This document shows, piece after piece, positions 57 through 20,924 of a DNA stretch of 21,937 nt. The DNA comes from a virus, in IMG/VR virus record IMGVR_UViG_3300037070_008393, positions 1 to 21,937 of that record, one strand, 5' to 3'. The position numbers were made by a program, and so were the translations under genes. The notes below the pieces were generated by a model. It was not told the origin of the DNA. It did not search any database and saw nothing but the letters and a program-made list of their open reading frames with translations. How positions within the stretch are numbered: position 1 is the first letter of the stretch; each line of letters opens with the position of its first letter.

Positions 57-1013
57 TTATGCGCTAGCCGCCATCTCCCCGAGCACCTCAATGACGGCCC
101 GGCAGTCATCGGCCGCGCGATGCCCGGCGCCGGGTAGGGGATGCCACCGGTAGTCGCCTTGCCGGTACAGCGGTTCACCGTCGCGCGCTTCGTAATCCCA
201 CGTCCAGTCCCCGCACCATTCGGCGTAGGCCTGCATGGCGCAGTCTTCCCAGGTCTGTGCGGCGAGCCAGGCGCGTGCTGCCGGGTGGATGCGCCGCTGG
301 CCGTGGCGGGGCTTCTCCAGGTTCGCGTAGCGGGCGCTGTAGTGGTGGTGGAGGCCGACGGCCAGGCGGCGTTTGTCGAAGTCCCGGTTGTAGATGACTA
401 CCTTGCGGTCGTGGAGAGCTTCGGTGAGCGGCAACAGCAGGTCGCTGAAGGTGGGGGCCGTCGACACCGCAGCGTCGGTGATGCCGTGAATGCGGGTCGC
501 TTCGGCCGGGATGGGTACGCCCGGGTTGACGAGGCTCTCGAGGAGAACTGTCCCGTCGATATTGAGGATGGCGATCTCGACGATGCGCGCTCCGTCGTGA
601 AGGCCAGTGGTTTCCGTGTCCAGGATGACGCTGGCCGGGTCGTCGAGAACCTGCCGCGCCCACTTCGATGCAGCGTCGCGGTCGGCGCGCCACATCGCCA
701 TCAACTCCTGATCGCACCAGCCCTTGTGGATGCCGTCGCAGTGCGGGCACGCGCGCTGCTTCCACCAGGTCGCGCGTCCGGCGGCGAGCGCGGCGAGTTG
801 AGCCGGGGTCGACTTGAGCTGCGCGGTGGTCTGCTCGAGGACGTAGAGCGGGGCGTGGTGGTGGCGGGGCATGCAGTACAGCCACGCCCGCGGGCGAGCT
901 TTCTGCCCCGGCCGCAGGCGGCGGCCGGCGTTCCGGAGTTGAGCGCGGGTCATGAGCTGGGCGGGGGCGCTGCCGGTGCTGTAGACGGGCAGGTCCTGGT
1001 AGGTGGTGGTCAT
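57..1013 (-). CDS. DEDDh 3'-5' exonuclease (DnaQ/RNase T-like)
   Basis: A 318-residue protein whose C-terminal two thirds is a DEDDh exonuclease. Such enzymes remove nucleotides from 3' ends of DNA or RNA with two metal ions. The ExoI motif DTETTGL gives D132 and E134, the ExoII motif YNRDFD gives N209 and D213, and the ExoIII motif HRAADD gives H298 and D303, so all catalytic positions are present. The N-terminal 120 residues are not part of the nuclease core; they are basic and contain a possible zinc knuckle (C89, C92, H96, C100). The ATG is chosen because it follows AGGAG at five bases and overlaps the stop of the preceding gene as ATGA, implying translational coupling; longer upstream readings lack such a site. 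Whether the substrate is RNA (RNase T-like) or DNA (proofreading-like) cannot be told from sequence. Confidence 0.9.
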   Translation of the reverse strand: MTTTYQDLPVYSTGSAPAQLMTRAQLRNAGRRLRPGQKARPRAWLYCMPRHHHAPLYVLEQTTAQLKSTPAQLAALAAGRATWWKQRACPHCDGIHKGWCDQELMAMWRADRDAASKWARQVLDDPASVILDTETTGLHDGARIVEIAILNIDGTVLLESLVNPGVPIPAEATRIHGITDAAVSTAPTFSDLLLPLTEALHDRKVVIYNRDFDKRRLAVGLHHHYSARYANLEKPRHGQRRIHPAARAWLAAQTWEDCAMQAYAEWCGDWTWDYEARDGEPLYRQGDYRWHPLPGAGHRAADDCRAVIEVLGEMAASA

Positions 1014-1255
1014 GGCTGCTCCTGGGCGGGCGGGATGACGAGGGTGAGGTAGGCGCGGAGGGCGCCCGGGGTGTACCTGCTGGGTCGGTACGAGACGGCG
1101 CCAGCTGCGCCCTCGGCGGCTTGCTGCATGGCGGCGACCAGGCGCTGTACGTCCGTCTCGTAGCCGACGAGTCGGATCTCGACCGGAGTTCCAGGGGCGA
1201 CCGGCGGGCTTTCGGTTCGCGGTCGAGGTGCGCGGCGGGCTGGGGTGCGGGCCAT
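1010..1255 (-). CDS. Small protein of unknown function, coupled to the exonuclease
   Basis: An 81-residue protein. The first 25 residues are rich in Arg, Pro and Ala and probably disordered. Residues 25-80 look like a small alpha/beta fold: a strand (VEIRLVGYE), an amphipathic helix with VQRLVAAMQQ, and a final strand (LRAYLTLVIP). I recognise similar small proteins as hypothetical genes of Streptomyces phages and integrative elements, but no function is known to me. The ATG follows GAGGAG at seven bases. Its stop overlaps the exonuclease start (ATGA), so the two are one operon and probably work or are expressed together. Confidence 0.75.
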   Translation of the reverse strand: MARTPARRAPRPRTESPPVAPGTPVEIRLVGYETDVQRLVAAMQQAAEGAAGAVSYRPSRYTPGALRAYLTLVIPPAQEQP

Positions 1256-1458
1256 GGGTGAACTCCTCGGCGCGGGCGGCTGGTTGGGGCGGGTTCTGAT
1301 GCTGCCCTGTTCCTCGCATTGCTCGCAATCCCCCGCAAACTGGTTACACGCACCCCTATAGGGACGCGTGTGCGTGCGGGGATCTAGCGGCCTACCGCAG
1401 GTCCGGTAACGGCTTGGTAAAGAGTCGGTGCGTGTCCCTGCGCTCGAGCACGCCAGAA
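1256..1458 (-). promoter_or_regulatory. Non-coding leader of the exonuclease operon
   Basis: No gene is visible on either strand between the Ro60-unit terminator and the small gene starting at 1255. Because the terminator should block read-through, the promoter of the two-gene exonuclease operon should lie here. I see no convincing -35/-10 pair. The only clear structure is the 26-base palindrome at 1346-1371, annotated separately. Confidence 0.5.
1346..1371. promoter_or_regulatory. 26-base palindrome, candidate operator
   Basis: The left arm ACACGC plus CCC is matched by GGG plus GCGTGT around a central TATA, with only two unpaired positions (A·C at 1352/1365 and C·A at 1353/1364). As minus-strand RNA both mismatches become G·U pairs, so it could also fold as a hairpin of 11 pairs. 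It is 91 bases upstream of the small gene start in an otherwise empty leader. A symmetrical site like this is typical for a dimeric repressor, but no matching repressor gene is in the window. Confidence 0.4.
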
Positions 1459-1513: not shown

Positions 1514-3187
1514 TCAGGACGCCTCTGTGGTCCAAGGCCACTTGGCGTCGCGGCCGGCTTCGAGGAGCGGAATCATGCGGAAGGCTGCATCGGTGAGACC
1601 GCCGAAGCAGTGCCGTCCGGCTGTCCCGCTCGGCATCACTCCAGGCTTGTAGCCAGCGAAGTTCCAGACGTACACGGGCGTCGTCCTCGGTACGAGGTCG
1701 TCGATGGCCGTCTCCCGCATGCCGCCATGGCCGTGCATGTTGGAGGGGAGCCATCCGGGACGGGTCTGTTCGTCGGTGACGATGACGATGCGGTCGTGGG
1801 CGAACCAGTGCTGTTTGACAGCGGTGGGGATGTCGGTGCCGTCGATCTGCCCGTACTGCTCGATGAGCTTGAGGACGCTGCCGCCCTTGGAAACGTCCAA
1901 CTGCTTGGACTGGCCGCCGAACTCGACGAGGGTCGGCTTCTCGGCGCGGAGGGCGAGCGCGGAGCCGAAGACCGCGGCCTGCTCTGCGAGAGGGATGTCC
2001 GACTGGTTCGGGGTGGAGAACATGTAGCCGGGGAACATCGACGGCGACCGGTCGACCAGGATCAGTGTGCTGCCCTTCAACTGGGGCACGTTGGCGAGCG
2101 AGTGGTTGAGAGCCTGCTCCAGGGCGTGAGCCCACCGCAGCGACGGGGCGTGCTTGTAGGCGGCCCACCAGCGGAACGGGAACATGCGGGACTTGGCGAC
2201 CTGCTCCAGGTCAGCGAACCGTGCGCAGATCTGCGCGGCCACCGAGTCGGAGACTCCGGCCTCGTCGAAGTTCCGCAGGTTCCGCGCGAGAGCCATTACG
2301 CCCATGGACGGAATCATCGCCTCCCAAGCGGCCTTATCCATCGGACCCTGCAGCCAGCCGGCCAGCGCCTCCCAGGTCATCCCAGCGGCCTCGAAGGTCG
2401 GCGCAAGGTCGTGGTGCTCGAGCATCTTGCGCCGTTCCTCGACGGGCCAGGCGAGAATTTCACTACGCCGCCGCAGAAGCTTCAGCGGCTCCGGGATCTC
2501 ATCGGCGTTGCCGTGGCGTCGGTCGAGGGCGTGCTGGAAGAGGTAGCCCTGCCAGGCCTTGCTGGAATCCGGGCTGGCGTGGACGAGGTTGAGGACGTCG
2601 CCGAATCGGTAGCCCTTGGAGTCGGTGTCGTACTTGAGCAGGCTGCGCTCGGAGTAGAGGCGCTGAACCGCATCGGCGATGCCGCGCTTTACTGGCTTGG
2701 GCAGCTTCCGTCCGTACTTGCTGGTCCAGTAGCCGAGCATCTCCCCCGGCTCGTCGGCGCGTTGGAGGACGGCGGCGATGACCTGCCGGTTCCAGCCTCC
2801 CCCGTTGGCGTTCTCGGCGCCGACGTCCGGTACGAGGTCTCCAGCGGCTGCCGCGTCGAGGCGGGCTTTGACGAACTCGGCGGCGCCGACGAGGGAGGCG
2901 CTCCGCATGTTGCCTTCACCGCGGAGCCAGCCGAGCAGGCCGACGGTCCACGCGGGGTCTTCGACGGCGAGCTGCCGGACGAGCTGGGTGTACCGGTCGT
3001 CGCGGTCGCCTCCCTTCTCGTAGAAGGCATCCTGGCCGACAAAGTTGCTGACGGCGAGGAGAAAGAGTTCGCCCCTCGCGTCGCGGAGGCGCCCGGTGGC
3101 GCCTTCGTGGGTGACGGTCTGCTCCCCGGTCGTGGTCACGGGTGAGTGGACGGCGGGACGAGCGCCGCGCTGATTGAAGCGAGACAA
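1514..3187 (-). CDS. Ro60-family RNA-binding protein (TROVE + vWA domains)
   Basis: A 557-residue protein of the Ro60/Rsr family, ring-shaped proteins that bind Y RNAs on their outer surface and the 3' ends of structured or misfolded RNAs in the central hole. The TROVE HEAT-like domain covers about residues 25-355; it opens with THEGA and holds the conserved-looking helices ELFLLAVSNFVG and KYGRKLPKPVKRG. The vWA domain (about 370-540) has a full MIDAS metal site: D379-x-S381-x-S383, T451 and D472. The TTG start is preferred: it gives an MSRFN N-terminus that I recall from related actinobacterial proteins, and GAGGGG lies seven bases upstream. A GTG at 3202 sits inside a hairpin and a GTG at 3139 has no ribosome site. 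The gene is directly downstream of two Y-RNA-like RNAs, the usual partners, and has its own terminator. Confidence 0.93.
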   Translation of the reverse strand: MSRFNQRGARPAVHSPVTTTGEQTVTHEGATGRLRDARGELFLLAVSNFVGQDAFYEKGGDRDDRYTQLVRQLAVEDPAWTVGLLGWLRGEGNMRSASLVGAAEFVKARLDAAAAGDLVPDVGAENANGGGWNRQVIAAVLQRADEPGEMLGYWTSKYGRKLPKPVKRGIADAVQRLYSERSLLKYDTDSKGYRFGDVLNLVHASPDSSKAWQGYLFQHALDRRHGNADEIPEPLKLLRRRSEILAWPVEERRKMLEHHDLAPTFEAAGMTWEALAGWLQGPMDKAAWEAMIPSMGVMALARNLRNFDEAGVSDSVAAQICARFADLEQVAKSRMFPFRWWAAYKHAPSLRWAHALEQALNHSLANVPQLKGSTLILVDRSPSMFPGYMFSTPNQSDIPLAEQAAVFGSALALRAEKPTLVEFGGQSKQLDVSKGGSVLKLIEQYGQIDGTDIPTAVKQHWFAHDRIVIVTDEQTRPGWLPSNMHGHGGMRETAIDDLVPRTTPVYVWNFAGYKPGVMPSGTAGRHCFGGLTDAAFRMIPLLEAGRDAKWPWTTEAS

Positions 3188-3194
3188 GAGAAAG

Positions 3195-3211
3195 CCCCTC
3201 ACTTGGAGGGG
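3195..3211 (-). promoter_or_regulatory. Hairpin holding the Ro60 ribosome binding site
   Basis: A perfect 6-base stem (CCCCTC / GAGGGG) with loop CAAGT is followed on the minus strand by CTTTCTCTT. The 3' arm GAGGGG is exactly the Shine-Dalgarno sequence for the TTG start at 3187. The element could therefore act as an intrinsic terminator for the upstream Y RNAs, as a structure that hides the ribosome site, or both. It lies 13 bases after the end of the Y RNA base stem. Confidence 0.6.
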
Positions 3212-3261
3212 AGGTTCAGCAGTGGGGTGCCCGAGATCAAGGTCGGCTGCGGAGACAAAGC

Positions 3262-3341
3262 GCTCTGGGCCACTGAGCTACCTCCGGTCCCCTGGACCGG
3301 CGGCCGGGATTCGAACCCGGGTCTCTCTCTTAGCAGGAGAA
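3262..3341 (-). other. Circularly permuted tRNA-like domain inside the Y RNA
   Basis: In transcript order: an anticodon-like arm (TTCTC, loop CTGCTAA, GAGAG; 3341-3325) with T33, A37 and a would-be GCU anticodon; a 4-base variable loop; a perfect T arm (CCGGG, loop TTCGAAT, CCCGG; 3320-3304); an acceptor-like 3' strand CCGCCGG followed by T-CCA (3303-3293); then the matching 5' strand GGACCGGAGG (3290-3281), giving ten positions with one A·G mismatch; TA; and a D arm (GCTC, loop AGTGGCCCA, GAGC; 3278-3262). The 3' acceptor strand is thus joined to the 5' strand, and the molecule opens between D arm and anticodon arm, where the Y stem attaches. It is not a standard tRNA gene because the parts are out of order. 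Confidence 0.8.
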
Positions 3342-3350
3342 GTATCCGCT

Positions 3351-3364
3351 GCCTGCGCACCGGG
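3351..3364 (-). repeat. Ro-binding 5' strand, repeated
   Basis: The 14-base minus-strand sequence CCCGGTGCGCAGGC occurs here in the tRNA-like Y RNA and again at 3448-3435 in the compact Y RNA, at the same place in each predicted stem. The flanking bases differ, so conservation is limited to the proposed protein-binding site and is not a general duplication. Confidence 0.85.
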
Positions 3365-3380
3365 CACCCCCGATGCTGTG

Positions 3381-3451
3381 CCTCCCGAGATCAAGTCGAC
3401 CTGCGGCAGAACTTTTCCAAAGAAGTAGCCGCGGGCCTGCGCACCGGGAGG
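3381..3451 (-). ncRNA. Compact second Y RNA
   Basis: About 71 nt, directly upstream of the tRNA-like Y RNA with nine bases between the stems. The base helix is CCTCCC (3451-3446) with GGGAGG (3386-3381). The next part repeats the Ro-binding strands: GGTGCGCAGG on the 5' side and CGACTTGATCTC on the 3' side. Above it a helix GCGGC / GCCGC (3432-3428 / 3407-3403) leads to a small ACTT/AAGT hairpin. There is no tRNA-like part, so this RNA would occupy Ro60 without offering the tRNA mimic. No promoter or terminator separates it from the next RNA, so both probably come from one transcript by processing. Two adjacent Y RNAs are also known in some bacteria (YrlA and YrlB of Salmonella). Confidence 0.75.
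3384..3395 (-). repeat. Ro-binding 3' strand, repeated
   Basis: The 12-base minus-strand sequence CTTGATCTCGGG occurs here in the compact Y RNA and at 3241-3230 in the tRNA-like Y RNA. It resembles the CUUGACU-type 3' strand of animal Y RNAs. Together with the 14-base 5' repeat it defines the shared binding module of both RNAs. Confidence 0.85.
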
Positions 3452-3470
3452 TGCATGAAGTTGTGGACCC

Positions 3471-19892: not shown

Positions 19893-20924
19893 TCAGGCCA
19901 TCGACTCCAGGGCGGAACACCAGGCCGTCAGATCGGTGGCAGGATCGAGCTCCACCGAGCGGGCCTTCGCACGCTTCGACGCCAGCCGGTACTCGGCCGG
20001 CGTCTTCAGTTTCCGCAGCACCGCCTCGTAGCCGGCCACATCGTTGCGGTCCACGAAGATCCCGGCCTCGCCGAGCGACTCGCACAGCCCAGGTGTCGGG
20101 TGGGCGATGACGGGGATACCGGAGGCCAGCGCCTCGCAGCCGGCCCGTCCCCACGACTCGTAGGACGAAGGCATCAGCAGGACACGAGTGCGGGCATACA
20201 CCCTCTCTCGCATGTCCTCACCGGGCACGTGCTCGACGACCTCGACGTTCGGCAGATCCGGAAGGATCTGCTCGCCGTAGGCGCCCTTCACGGCGAGGAA
20301 CTGCTGATCCGGCATGCGTTCGGCCAAGGCCCTGAGAACCTTGCCGCCCTTCTCCGGATTGCAGTTGACCAACGTGACAGCCTTCCCAGGCTTCGTCGCG
20401 TACTCGTCGGCGAACACCGGCGGACGCACAATCATCGACGACTCGGGCCGGATCGACTTCGGGTACTCGGCGAAGAACAGCTCCGCCTCCCGCTCCATCC
20501 ACAGGCTGTTGTAGACCGCCAGCGAGGTTCCGCCAGCAGCCATATCCCGGAACGTCGGACGGTGCGTGTTGTGGCAGACCACCACCAGCCGCTTCCCATA
20601 CCCGCGGGCCAGCGACGCCGTCGGCGGCACCGTCTCCAGATGGGCGAGCAGAACGTCCGCCCGCCGCACCGCAGACGGGAAGTCCAGGCGCGACTCCAAC
20701 GGCAACACCCGGATCCCGTGGTACTCGTACTCCTGGTGGGCCCTGCCGTAGCGTCCCAACCACACCGACACGTCGTGCCCGCGCTCCACCAAAGGACGCA
20801 GCATCGACACGAGCATGTGCTCGGCGCCCGCATTGTGCTCCGGGGGCATGGCGTGGACCCGGGCGACGATCCTCAGGGGCTTGGCTGCCCCGCCCGGCGC
20901 GGAAGCCGGGACAGCCCTGGCCAT
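19893..20924 (-). CDS. Glycosyltransferase, GT-B fold (family 4-like)
   Basis: A 343-residue enzyme that transfers a sugar from a nucleotide or other activated donor. The N-terminal Rossmann domain (about 15-170) has PLRIVARVHAMPPEHNAGAEHML, typical of acceptor-side GT4 domains; the C-terminal domain has the EX7E motif with E256 and E264 (ESWGRAGCEALASGIPVIA), the donor-binding mark of GT4. No membrane segment is seen. The ATG overlaps the capsid stop by one base (TGATG), so it is co-translated with the capsid. Some actinobacteriophages glycosylate their capsid or tail proteins; this enzyme is a good candidate for that, though a role in altering host surface sugars is possible. Confidence 0.9.
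   Translation of the reverse strand: MARAVPASAPGGAAKPLRIVARVHAMPPEHNAGAEHMLVSMLRPLVERGHDVSVWLGRYGRAHQEYEYHGIRVLPLESRLDFPSAVRRADVLLAHLETVPPTASLARGYGKRLVVVCHNTHRPTFRDMAAGGTSLAVYNSLWMEREAELFFAEYPKSIRPESSMIVRPPVFADEYATKPGKAVTLVNCNPEKGGKVLRALAERMPDQQFLAVKGAYGEQILPDLPNVEVVEHVPGEDMRERVYARTRVLLMPSSYESWGRAGCEALASGIPVIAHPTPGLCESLGEAGIFVDRNDVAGYEAVLRKLKTPAEYRLASKRAKARSVELDPATDLTAWCSALESMA

What the first reader, a model, noticed from the sequence alone, without database searches (positions are those of the whole stretch)
3262..3341. tRNA mimic in permuted order, with a TCCA end joined to the acceptor 5' strand
Every arm of a tRNA is present with good pairing: T arm with TTCGAAT, D arm, and a seven-base anticodon-like loop with GCT. 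The order is circularly permuted and the acceptor 3' strand even ends T-CCA before running through a tiny loop into the 5' strand. The opening between D arm and anticodon arm is where the Y stem attaches. If the acceptor loop were cut and the Y stem spliced out, a near-complete tRNA would result. This suggests the Y RNA arose from a tRNA, and that the mimic may attract tRNA enzymes such as RNase P, CCA enzyme, modification enzymes or anticodon nucleases.
Basis: partly seen in the sequence, partly recalled or inferred. Interest (0 to 1): 0.9.

Follow-up and report, generated by a model that had tools for sequence, protein, structure and literature searches.

The report
Phage Y RNA carrying permuted tRNA
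A Streptomyces-type phage carries, beside its Ro60 gene, a small RNA in which a whole tRNA, anticodon arm included, is built in rotated order onto a Ro60-binding stem; comparison with many relatives suggests such tRNA parts were taken from several different tRNAs.

Summary
Window 3371-3222 encodes a Y RNA (YrlA type) upstream of a phage Ro60/TROVE gene. In order it holds: Y stem, anticodon arm (loop CUGCUAA), T arm, acceptor 3' strand, UCCA, short loop, acceptor 5' strand, UA, D arm, Y stem. RNAalifold on 37 relatives gives 33 pairs, 21 with compensatory changes. tRNA mimicry by bacterial YrlA is already published.

What I did not find in print: among 173 distinct relatives from phages and Streptomyces, 103 have a 5-bp/7-nt anticodon arm. 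U33 and A38 each hold in 102 of 103, while positions 34-36 vary. Another 56 instead have a covarying cross-strand anticodon stem, as in Rfam's YrlA model. CCA occurs at exactly positions 74-76 in 15 of 85 distinct linkers (shuffles: mean 2.3, maximum 9). Some modules resemble tRNA-Glu, Pro, Asn, or Leu with its long variable arm; the window's own isotype is unclear. So tRNA ancestry is well supported, probably more than once. Phage annotators have called such RNAs tRNAs.

Unproven: expression, Ro60 binding, and any decoy role. Energy models alone favour a shifted anticodon-stem register in the window RNA. Verdict: new variant of a known kind.

The parts
3342..3371 (-). Y stem, 5' strand (GGGGGUGCCCGGUGCGCAGGCAGCGGAUAC)
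   Evidence: R1 covariance match 3371-3222, 145.8 bits (the window is one of the 37 model sequences); fold
3325..3341 (-). anticodon arm: UUCUC, 7-nt loop CUGCUAA (anticodon GCU), GAGAG
   Evidence: 5/5 pairs; relatives' inner pairs covary
3321..3324 (-). variable region AGAC
   Evidence: read; parse
3304..3320 (-). T arm CCGGG UUCGAAU CCCGG
3297..3303 (-). acceptor 3' strand CCGCCGG
3293..3296 (-). UCCA at tRNA positions 73-76; UCC pairs with GGA of the linker
3288..3292 (-). linker GGGGA joining the CCA to the acceptor 5' strand
3281..3287 (-). acceptor 5' strand CCGGAGG
3262..3280 (-). U8A9 and D arm (GCUC AGUGGCCCA GAGC)
3222..3261 (-). link GCUUU and Y stem 3' strand (..GUCUCCGCAGCCGACCUUGAUCUCGGGCACCCCAC)
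3376..3455 (-). second, shorter Y RNA without tRNA module
   Evidence: R1 match 45.4 bits, E 1.2e-8; fold z -1.93
3195..3211 (-). intrinsic-terminator-like hairpin after the Y RNA
   Evidence: 1 found, 0.2 expected in shuffles
1514..3202 (-). Ro60/TROVE protein gene (exact start uncertain)
   Evidence: PF05731 4e-12; phrog_850 3.5e-45

Best explanation
It is a phage YrlA-like Y RNA. Its long Y stem is held by the Ro60 ring protein encoded just downstream, and its other end is a circularly permuted class I tRNA module with a complete anticodon arm (the 'closed' class). The module most likely descends from tRNA genes; an arrangement such as the middle of a tandem tRNA pair (3' half of the first, 5' half of the second) would give this order in one step. 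The RNA probably works as an adaptor of the Ro60 particle: the Y stem clamps Ro60 and the tRNA-shaped end docks a tRNA-recognising partner, PNPase in the known system, possibly tRNA modification enzymes or tRNA-cutting enzymes as well. Shown here: anatomy, covariation, linkage to Ro60, and tRNA ancestry of the family. Inferred: expression, Ro60 binding, the partner, and the meaning of the anticodon loop.
For: Permuted order and pairs in 37 aligned relatives: 33 pairs, 21 with double changes. Ro60 gene adjacent. In 61 Streptomyces genomes, strong matches (E < 1e-13) occur in 35 of 39 with TROVE and 0 of 22 without; 38 of the 43 places I entered lie within 2.5 kb of TROVE. Closed anticodon arm in 103 of 173 distinct modules with no sequence criterion on the loop; U33 102/103, A38 102/103, C32 98/103, 34-36 variable. 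Inner pairs 29-31:39-41 formed in all of 33 dereplicated closed modules, shuffled maximum 0.75. CCA at 74-76 in 15 of 85 distinct linkers, at most 1 at any other offset. Glu-, Pro-, Asn- and class II Leu-like modules. Tandem tRNA-Asn genes match both RF02553 and R1 across the gene boundary.
Against: No expression or binding data. Rfam YrlA score 19.4, far below the gathering score 69. The 7-nt-loop register is disfavoured by the energy model in the window RNA and exceeds 0.5 probability in only 13 of 103 closed modules folded as isolated segments. The window module's own isotype is unclear (Thr/Gly/Met/Lys score alike) and does not match its Ser anticodon. The anticodon-body isotype match is significant over all 103 modules (0 of 500 permutations) but only modest with one module per cluster (14 of 500). 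My module parser selects for the permuted layout and for a UACUUC-like motif, so percentages for acceptor, T and D arms are conditioned on that.
Confidence: 0.8

Rival explanations
1. The anticodon arm is a structural relic: U33 and the C32/A38 pair keep a stable U-turn loop that caps the fifth helix, and the letters 34-36 drift freely without function.
For: 34-35 vary widely within one body cluster, e.g. Glu-type bodies with CUC, GUC, AUC, GUA, GCA, GCC, UGA; 56 of 173 relatives have no such arm at all.
Against: Within non-Glu bodies U36-A37-A38 with U33 is kept in 70 of 88, and A34 is seen in 1 of 103, more constraint than a bare U-turn needs, though shared descent could also give this.
Confidence: 0.4
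2. The anticodon arm is a lure: it presents an anticodon loop to anticodon-reading enzymes (anticodon nucleases, tRNA-cutting toxins, or t6A37/other modification enzymes), and Ro60 carries or protects the complex.
For: Loop keeps U33, U36, A37, A38 in most modules, which is the t6A-type pattern (recalled), while 34-35 vary; several phages carry arrays of such RNAs with different loops (L025, L248, L251).
Against: No nuclease or enzyme partner identified; no conserved neighbour of 12 YrlA copies taken as lying away from Ro60; Salmonella YrlA was not cleaved by the anticodon nuclease, although those authors propose competitive inhibition.
Confidence: 0.3
3. A genuine linear tRNA-Ser(GCU) gene, as ARAGORN calls it at 3363-3293.
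For: ARAGORN call; an acceptor pairing of the Y-stem 5' strand with CCGCCGG followed by UCCA can be drawn by eye.
Against: No RF00005 match up to E 10; linear acceptor pairs have probability 0; host Ser tRNAs have long variable arms; phage annotations of tRNA at 6 of 19 fetched Ro60 loci overlap YrlA matches.
Confidence: 0.02
4. A permuted tRNA gene of the algal/archaeal kind: the RNA is processed at the Y-stem junction, circularised and opened at the acceptor loop into a working tRNA.
For: 3' half precedes 5' half, CCA at 74-76, complete cloverleaf after un-permuting.
Against: Junction lies in a long conserved Y stem beside Ro60; class I body with a Ser anticodon; linker absent (0 nt) in 11 of 173 relatives; bacteria are not known to have the splicing machinery (recalled).
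Confidence: 0.03

Closest known systems
Bacterial Y RNA YrlA (Chen et al. 2014, Wang et al. 2018; Rfam RF02553)
   Same: Y stem next to Ro60; T arm, acceptor hairpin, UA, D arm in the same permuted order (RF02553 consensus); a review describes D, T and acceptor arm mimicry and DusA/TruB modification (passages of PMC8394870).
   Different: RF02553 has a short cross-strand stem where this RNA has a separate 5-bp/7-nt anticodon arm; score 19.4 against a cut-off of 69. The original papers are not held, so whether they noted such arms is not known to me.
Circularly permuted tRNA genes of algae and archaea
   Same: 3' half before 5' half, joined through the acceptor end; tandem duplication and loss of outer halves is a published origin model (passages of PMC3978253).
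   Different: Those give mature tRNAs; here the module stays on a Ro60-binding stem.
RYPER (Ro60-Y RNA-PNPase) of Deinococcus
   Same: Likely adaptor logic: Y stem tethers Ro60, other end docks an exonuclease (passages of PMC8394870).
   Different: No PNPase link tested here.
tmRNA
   Same: tRNA-like domain fused to another RNA function.
   Different: No tag frame or SmpB part was seen; no tmRNA match in the window.

Membership tests
Bacterial Y RNA with tRNA-like module (YrlA, broad sense) | T arm, acceptor hairpin and D arm in permuted order on a closing Y stem | tested here: met
Bacterial Y RNA with tRNA-like module (YrlA, broad sense) | encoded beside a Ro60/TROVE gene | tested here: met
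   family association
Bacterial Y RNA with tRNA-like module (YrlA, broad sense) | binds Ro60 through the Y stem | not testable with these tools
   needs pull-down or structure
Rfam RF02553 YrlA | curated gathering score 69 | tested here: not met
   19.4 bits, model positions 28-81 only
Rfam RF02553 YrlA | cross-strand stem (not a separate hairpin) between T arm side and D arm side | tested here: not met
   RF02553 consensus; window has a local hairpin, cross stem 4 of 5 pairs possible but probability 0 in the energy model
tRNA gene | linear cloverleaf matching RF00005 | tested here: not met
   no RF00005 match up to E 10; ARAGORN call only
Permuted tRNA gene | 3' half upstream of 5' half with intervening linker | tested here: met
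Permuted tRNA gene | bulge-helix-bulge at the junction and a mature tRNA product | not tested
   no BHB scan, no RNA data

The most novel reading that the evidence does not exclude
Phages and actinobacteria have repeatedly taken up tRNA modules of different isotypes (Glu, Pro, Asn, class II Leu and others), in permuted form, onto one Ro60-binding Y stem. They keep a true anticodon loop with changing anticodons, so that the Ro60 particle presents a repertoire of tRNA lures, in arrays in some phages, to enzymes that read or cut tRNA anticodons.
Probability: 0.25. Interest if true: 0.85.

Novelty: new variant of a known kind. Interest (0 to 1): 0.62.

Why it matters
The origin of bacterial Y RNAs and the role of their tRNA-like end are open questions. 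A class with a full anticodon arm, CCA traces at the right place and modules resembling several tRNA isotypes makes a tRNA origin testable sequence by sequence, and gives a concrete handle (anticodon substitutions) for function. It also means that some phage 'tRNA' annotations next to Ro60 genes are wrong: 6 of 19 fetched phage loci overlap a YrlA match.

Tried and rejected
Linear tRNA-Ser reading: rejected. A tRNA-Ser origin from the GCU anticodon: rejected for the body, which matches no isotype clearly. A conserved exonuclease partner: the RNase_T-family gene at 57-1328 has relatives in only 2 of 61 loci searched, L002-L062. A shared neighbour gene of 12 YrlA copies taken as away from Ro60: none in more than 5 of 12 loci, and not at one place. 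RF02553 matches in Streptomyces hosts as evidence of canonical YrlA: two of four (L093, L094) are tandem tRNA-Asn genes, while L095 is a true YrlA found better by R1; I infer, without checking each, that many of the R1 matches near 3e-8 are tandem tRNAs too. In print: searches for Y RNA + permuted tRNA, Ro60 + Streptomyces + Y RNA and phage-encoded + tRNA mimic + anticodon nuclease found 0 papers; YrlA + anticodon found 3, of which I read YrlA passages only; the library lacks the key Y RNA papers.

Full report
What was checked. The window is a whole IMG/VR virus record of 21,937 bases, with tail, capsid, endolysin and head-tail genes and a Ro60/TROVE gene at 1514-3202 on the minus strand. The feature lies just upstream of that gene, on the same strand. 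Read 3371->3222 it is: Y stem 5' strand; anticodon arm; T arm; acceptor 3' strand; UCCA; linker; acceptor 5' strand; UA; D arm; Y stem 3' strand.

Is it more than chance. RNAfold of 3222-3372(-) gives all arms (z -2.33; 3 of 200 shuffles as stable). A sequence-blind search for the layout (T 5/5, acceptor at least 6/7 in register, D 4/4, anticodon arm 5/5 with a 7-nt loop) succeeds in 7 of 20000 letter shuffles of this RNA. A second, shorter Y RNA lies at 3376-3455(-), and a terminator-like hairpin follows the YrlA at 3211-3195(-).

Relatives. The Ro60 protein gave 29 viral loci and 18 bacterial genome loci, 17 of them titled Streptomyces or Streptantibioticus and one Amycolatopsis; 19 phage records were also read. 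A MAFFT alignment of 37 YrlA units (the units had been chosen by a parser asking for T, acceptor and D pairing) gave an RNAalifold consensus of 33 pairs, 21 with compensatory changes; at acceptor columns 79-84 between 7 and 20 of 37 sequences are changed on both sides. A covariance model R1 matched the window with 145.8 bits (the window is a model member).

Linkage to Ro60. Of 199 Streptomyces genomes, 177 have an R1 match at E <= 1e-6, but weak ones can be tandem tRNA genes. Among 61 of these genomes also searched for TROVE, strong R1 matches (E < 1e-13) occur in 35 of 39 with TROVE and in 0 of 22 without (Fisher 7e-13). Of 43 strong places that I entered, 38 lie within 2.5 kb of a TROVE match.

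Two classes of tRNA module. A parser run on the window and the fetched phage and genome loci (it asks for T, acceptor and D pairing and an upstream UACUUC-like motif) gave 173 distinct modules. Acceptor pairs are 7/7 in 147 and 6/7 in 26; N8N9 is UA in 148, UC in 17, UG in 8. With no criterion on loop letters, 103 of 173 have a 5/5 hairpin with a 7-nt loop 4-5 nt before the T arm, against 1.8% of letter shuffles. In these, U33 is kept in 102, A38 in 102 and C32 in 98 of 103, while 34-36 vary. A looser class of 115, of which 113 have a 7-nt loop, shows 22 different anticodons. In that class of 115 the stem pairs in 98% of cells against a shuffled maximum of 83%; 56 further modules instead have a cross-strand 27-31:39-43 stem, 93% paired against a shuffled maximum of 70%; 2 fit neither. 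After removing near-copies, 65 representatives remain, 33 of them closed; the inner pairs 29-31:39-41 all form, shuffled maximum 0.75 (C29 is partly fixed by the parser's motif). The Rfam model RF02553 shows only the cross-strand kind (alignment). The window belongs to the closed class.

Evidence for tRNA ancestry. Re-ordered into tRNA order, 103 of 103 closed modules are called tRNAs by ARAGORN with the expected anticodon, 0 of 103 shuffles, and 11 of 103 in native order; with a foreign acceptor strand 66 of 92 are still called, so the program weighs that stem lightly. CCA stands at 74-76 in 15 of 85 distinct linkers of 4 nt or more, and in at most 1 at any other offset; shuffles give a mean of 2.3 and a maximum of 9 in 2000; among the dereplicated set 5 of 47. 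Compared with 58 tRNAs of one Streptomyces genome, Glu-type bodies (17 of 17 in three clusters), a Pro-type module with a UGG loop, and several Asn-type modules stand out; Caulobacter and Brevundimonas phage modules resemble tRNA-Leu including its long variable arm. Over all 103 modules the anticodon's amino acid ranks better than in any of 500 label permutations; with one module per cluster 14 of 500 do as well, and only 4 of 27 clusters agree outright. The window module itself has no clear isotype. Tandem tRNA-Asn genes in two hosts match YrlA models across their boundary, which shows how a permuted module could arise; tandem duplication with loss of outer halves is a published model for permuted tRNA genes (passages of PMC3978253).

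The anticodon loop. Outside Glu-type bodies, U33 with U36-A37-A38 is kept in 70 of 88 modules; in Glu-type bodies C36-A37-A38 in 11 of 15; A34 occurs in 1 of 103. U36-A37-A38 is, from recall, the pattern of tRNAs that receive t6A37. Several phages carry arrays: L025 and L251 have five or more R1 matches each, L248 three, with different loops.

Against. Rfam's YrlA model scores 19.4 against a cut-off of 69, so I do not file it under RF02553 but under YrlA-like Y RNAs in the broad sense. The energy model prefers a shifted anticodon register in the window by 2.5 kcal/mol, and gives the 7-nt register more than 0.5 in only 13 of 103 isolated segments. There are no transcript or binding data.

Mechanism. 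Published work (seen as passages of a review) has YrlA tethering Ro60 to PNPase, with DusA and TruB acting on its tRNA-like arms. The same adaptor role is the most likely one here. What the anticodon arm adds is open: a structural cap (0.4) or a lure for anticodon-reading enzymes (0.3).

Verdict. Known kind, new variant.

Noticed in passing
L051 2298-2376, L052 1769-1843, L053 1777-1850, L057 1748-1838, L058 1704-1775, L248 1828-1895: Genes annotated as tRNAs (Thr, Arg, Ser, Pro, Arg, Thr) just upstream of phage Ro60 genes overlap YrlA covariance matches and are probably Y RNAs.
   Followed up: yes
L251 1607-1767 and 1783-1917; L249 1824-1979: Y RNAs of Caulobacter and Brevundimonas phages whose modules resemble tRNA-Leu; L251 1607 and L249 1824 include the long variable arm.
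   Followed up: partly
L236-L247: Second YrlA copies in Streptomyces chromosomes, many Glu-like; those checked against TROVE positions lie away from Ro60, and no conserved neighbour gene was found.
   Followed up: partly
L093 1477-1627, L094 1477-1628: Tandem tRNA-Asn genes five to six bases apart match the Rfam YrlA model across their boundary; a source of false YrlA calls.
   Followed up: yes
window 57-1328 (-): RNase_T-family (DnaQ-like) exonuclease gene next to Ro60; relatives in only 2 of 61 loci.
   Followed up: yes
window 19893-20924 (-): Glycosyltransferase gene placed next to the capsid gene, between it and the head-tail adaptor gene.
   Followed up: no
L014 2873-2981, L044 2873-2982, L045 2855-2965: Y RNAs with a T-arm-like hairpin beside a G+C-rich hairpin but no acceptor or D arm, perhaps decayed modules.
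   Followed up: no
L056 1238-1990: RNA ligase gene directly upstream of Ro60 in Streptomyces phage Kela.
   Followed up: no
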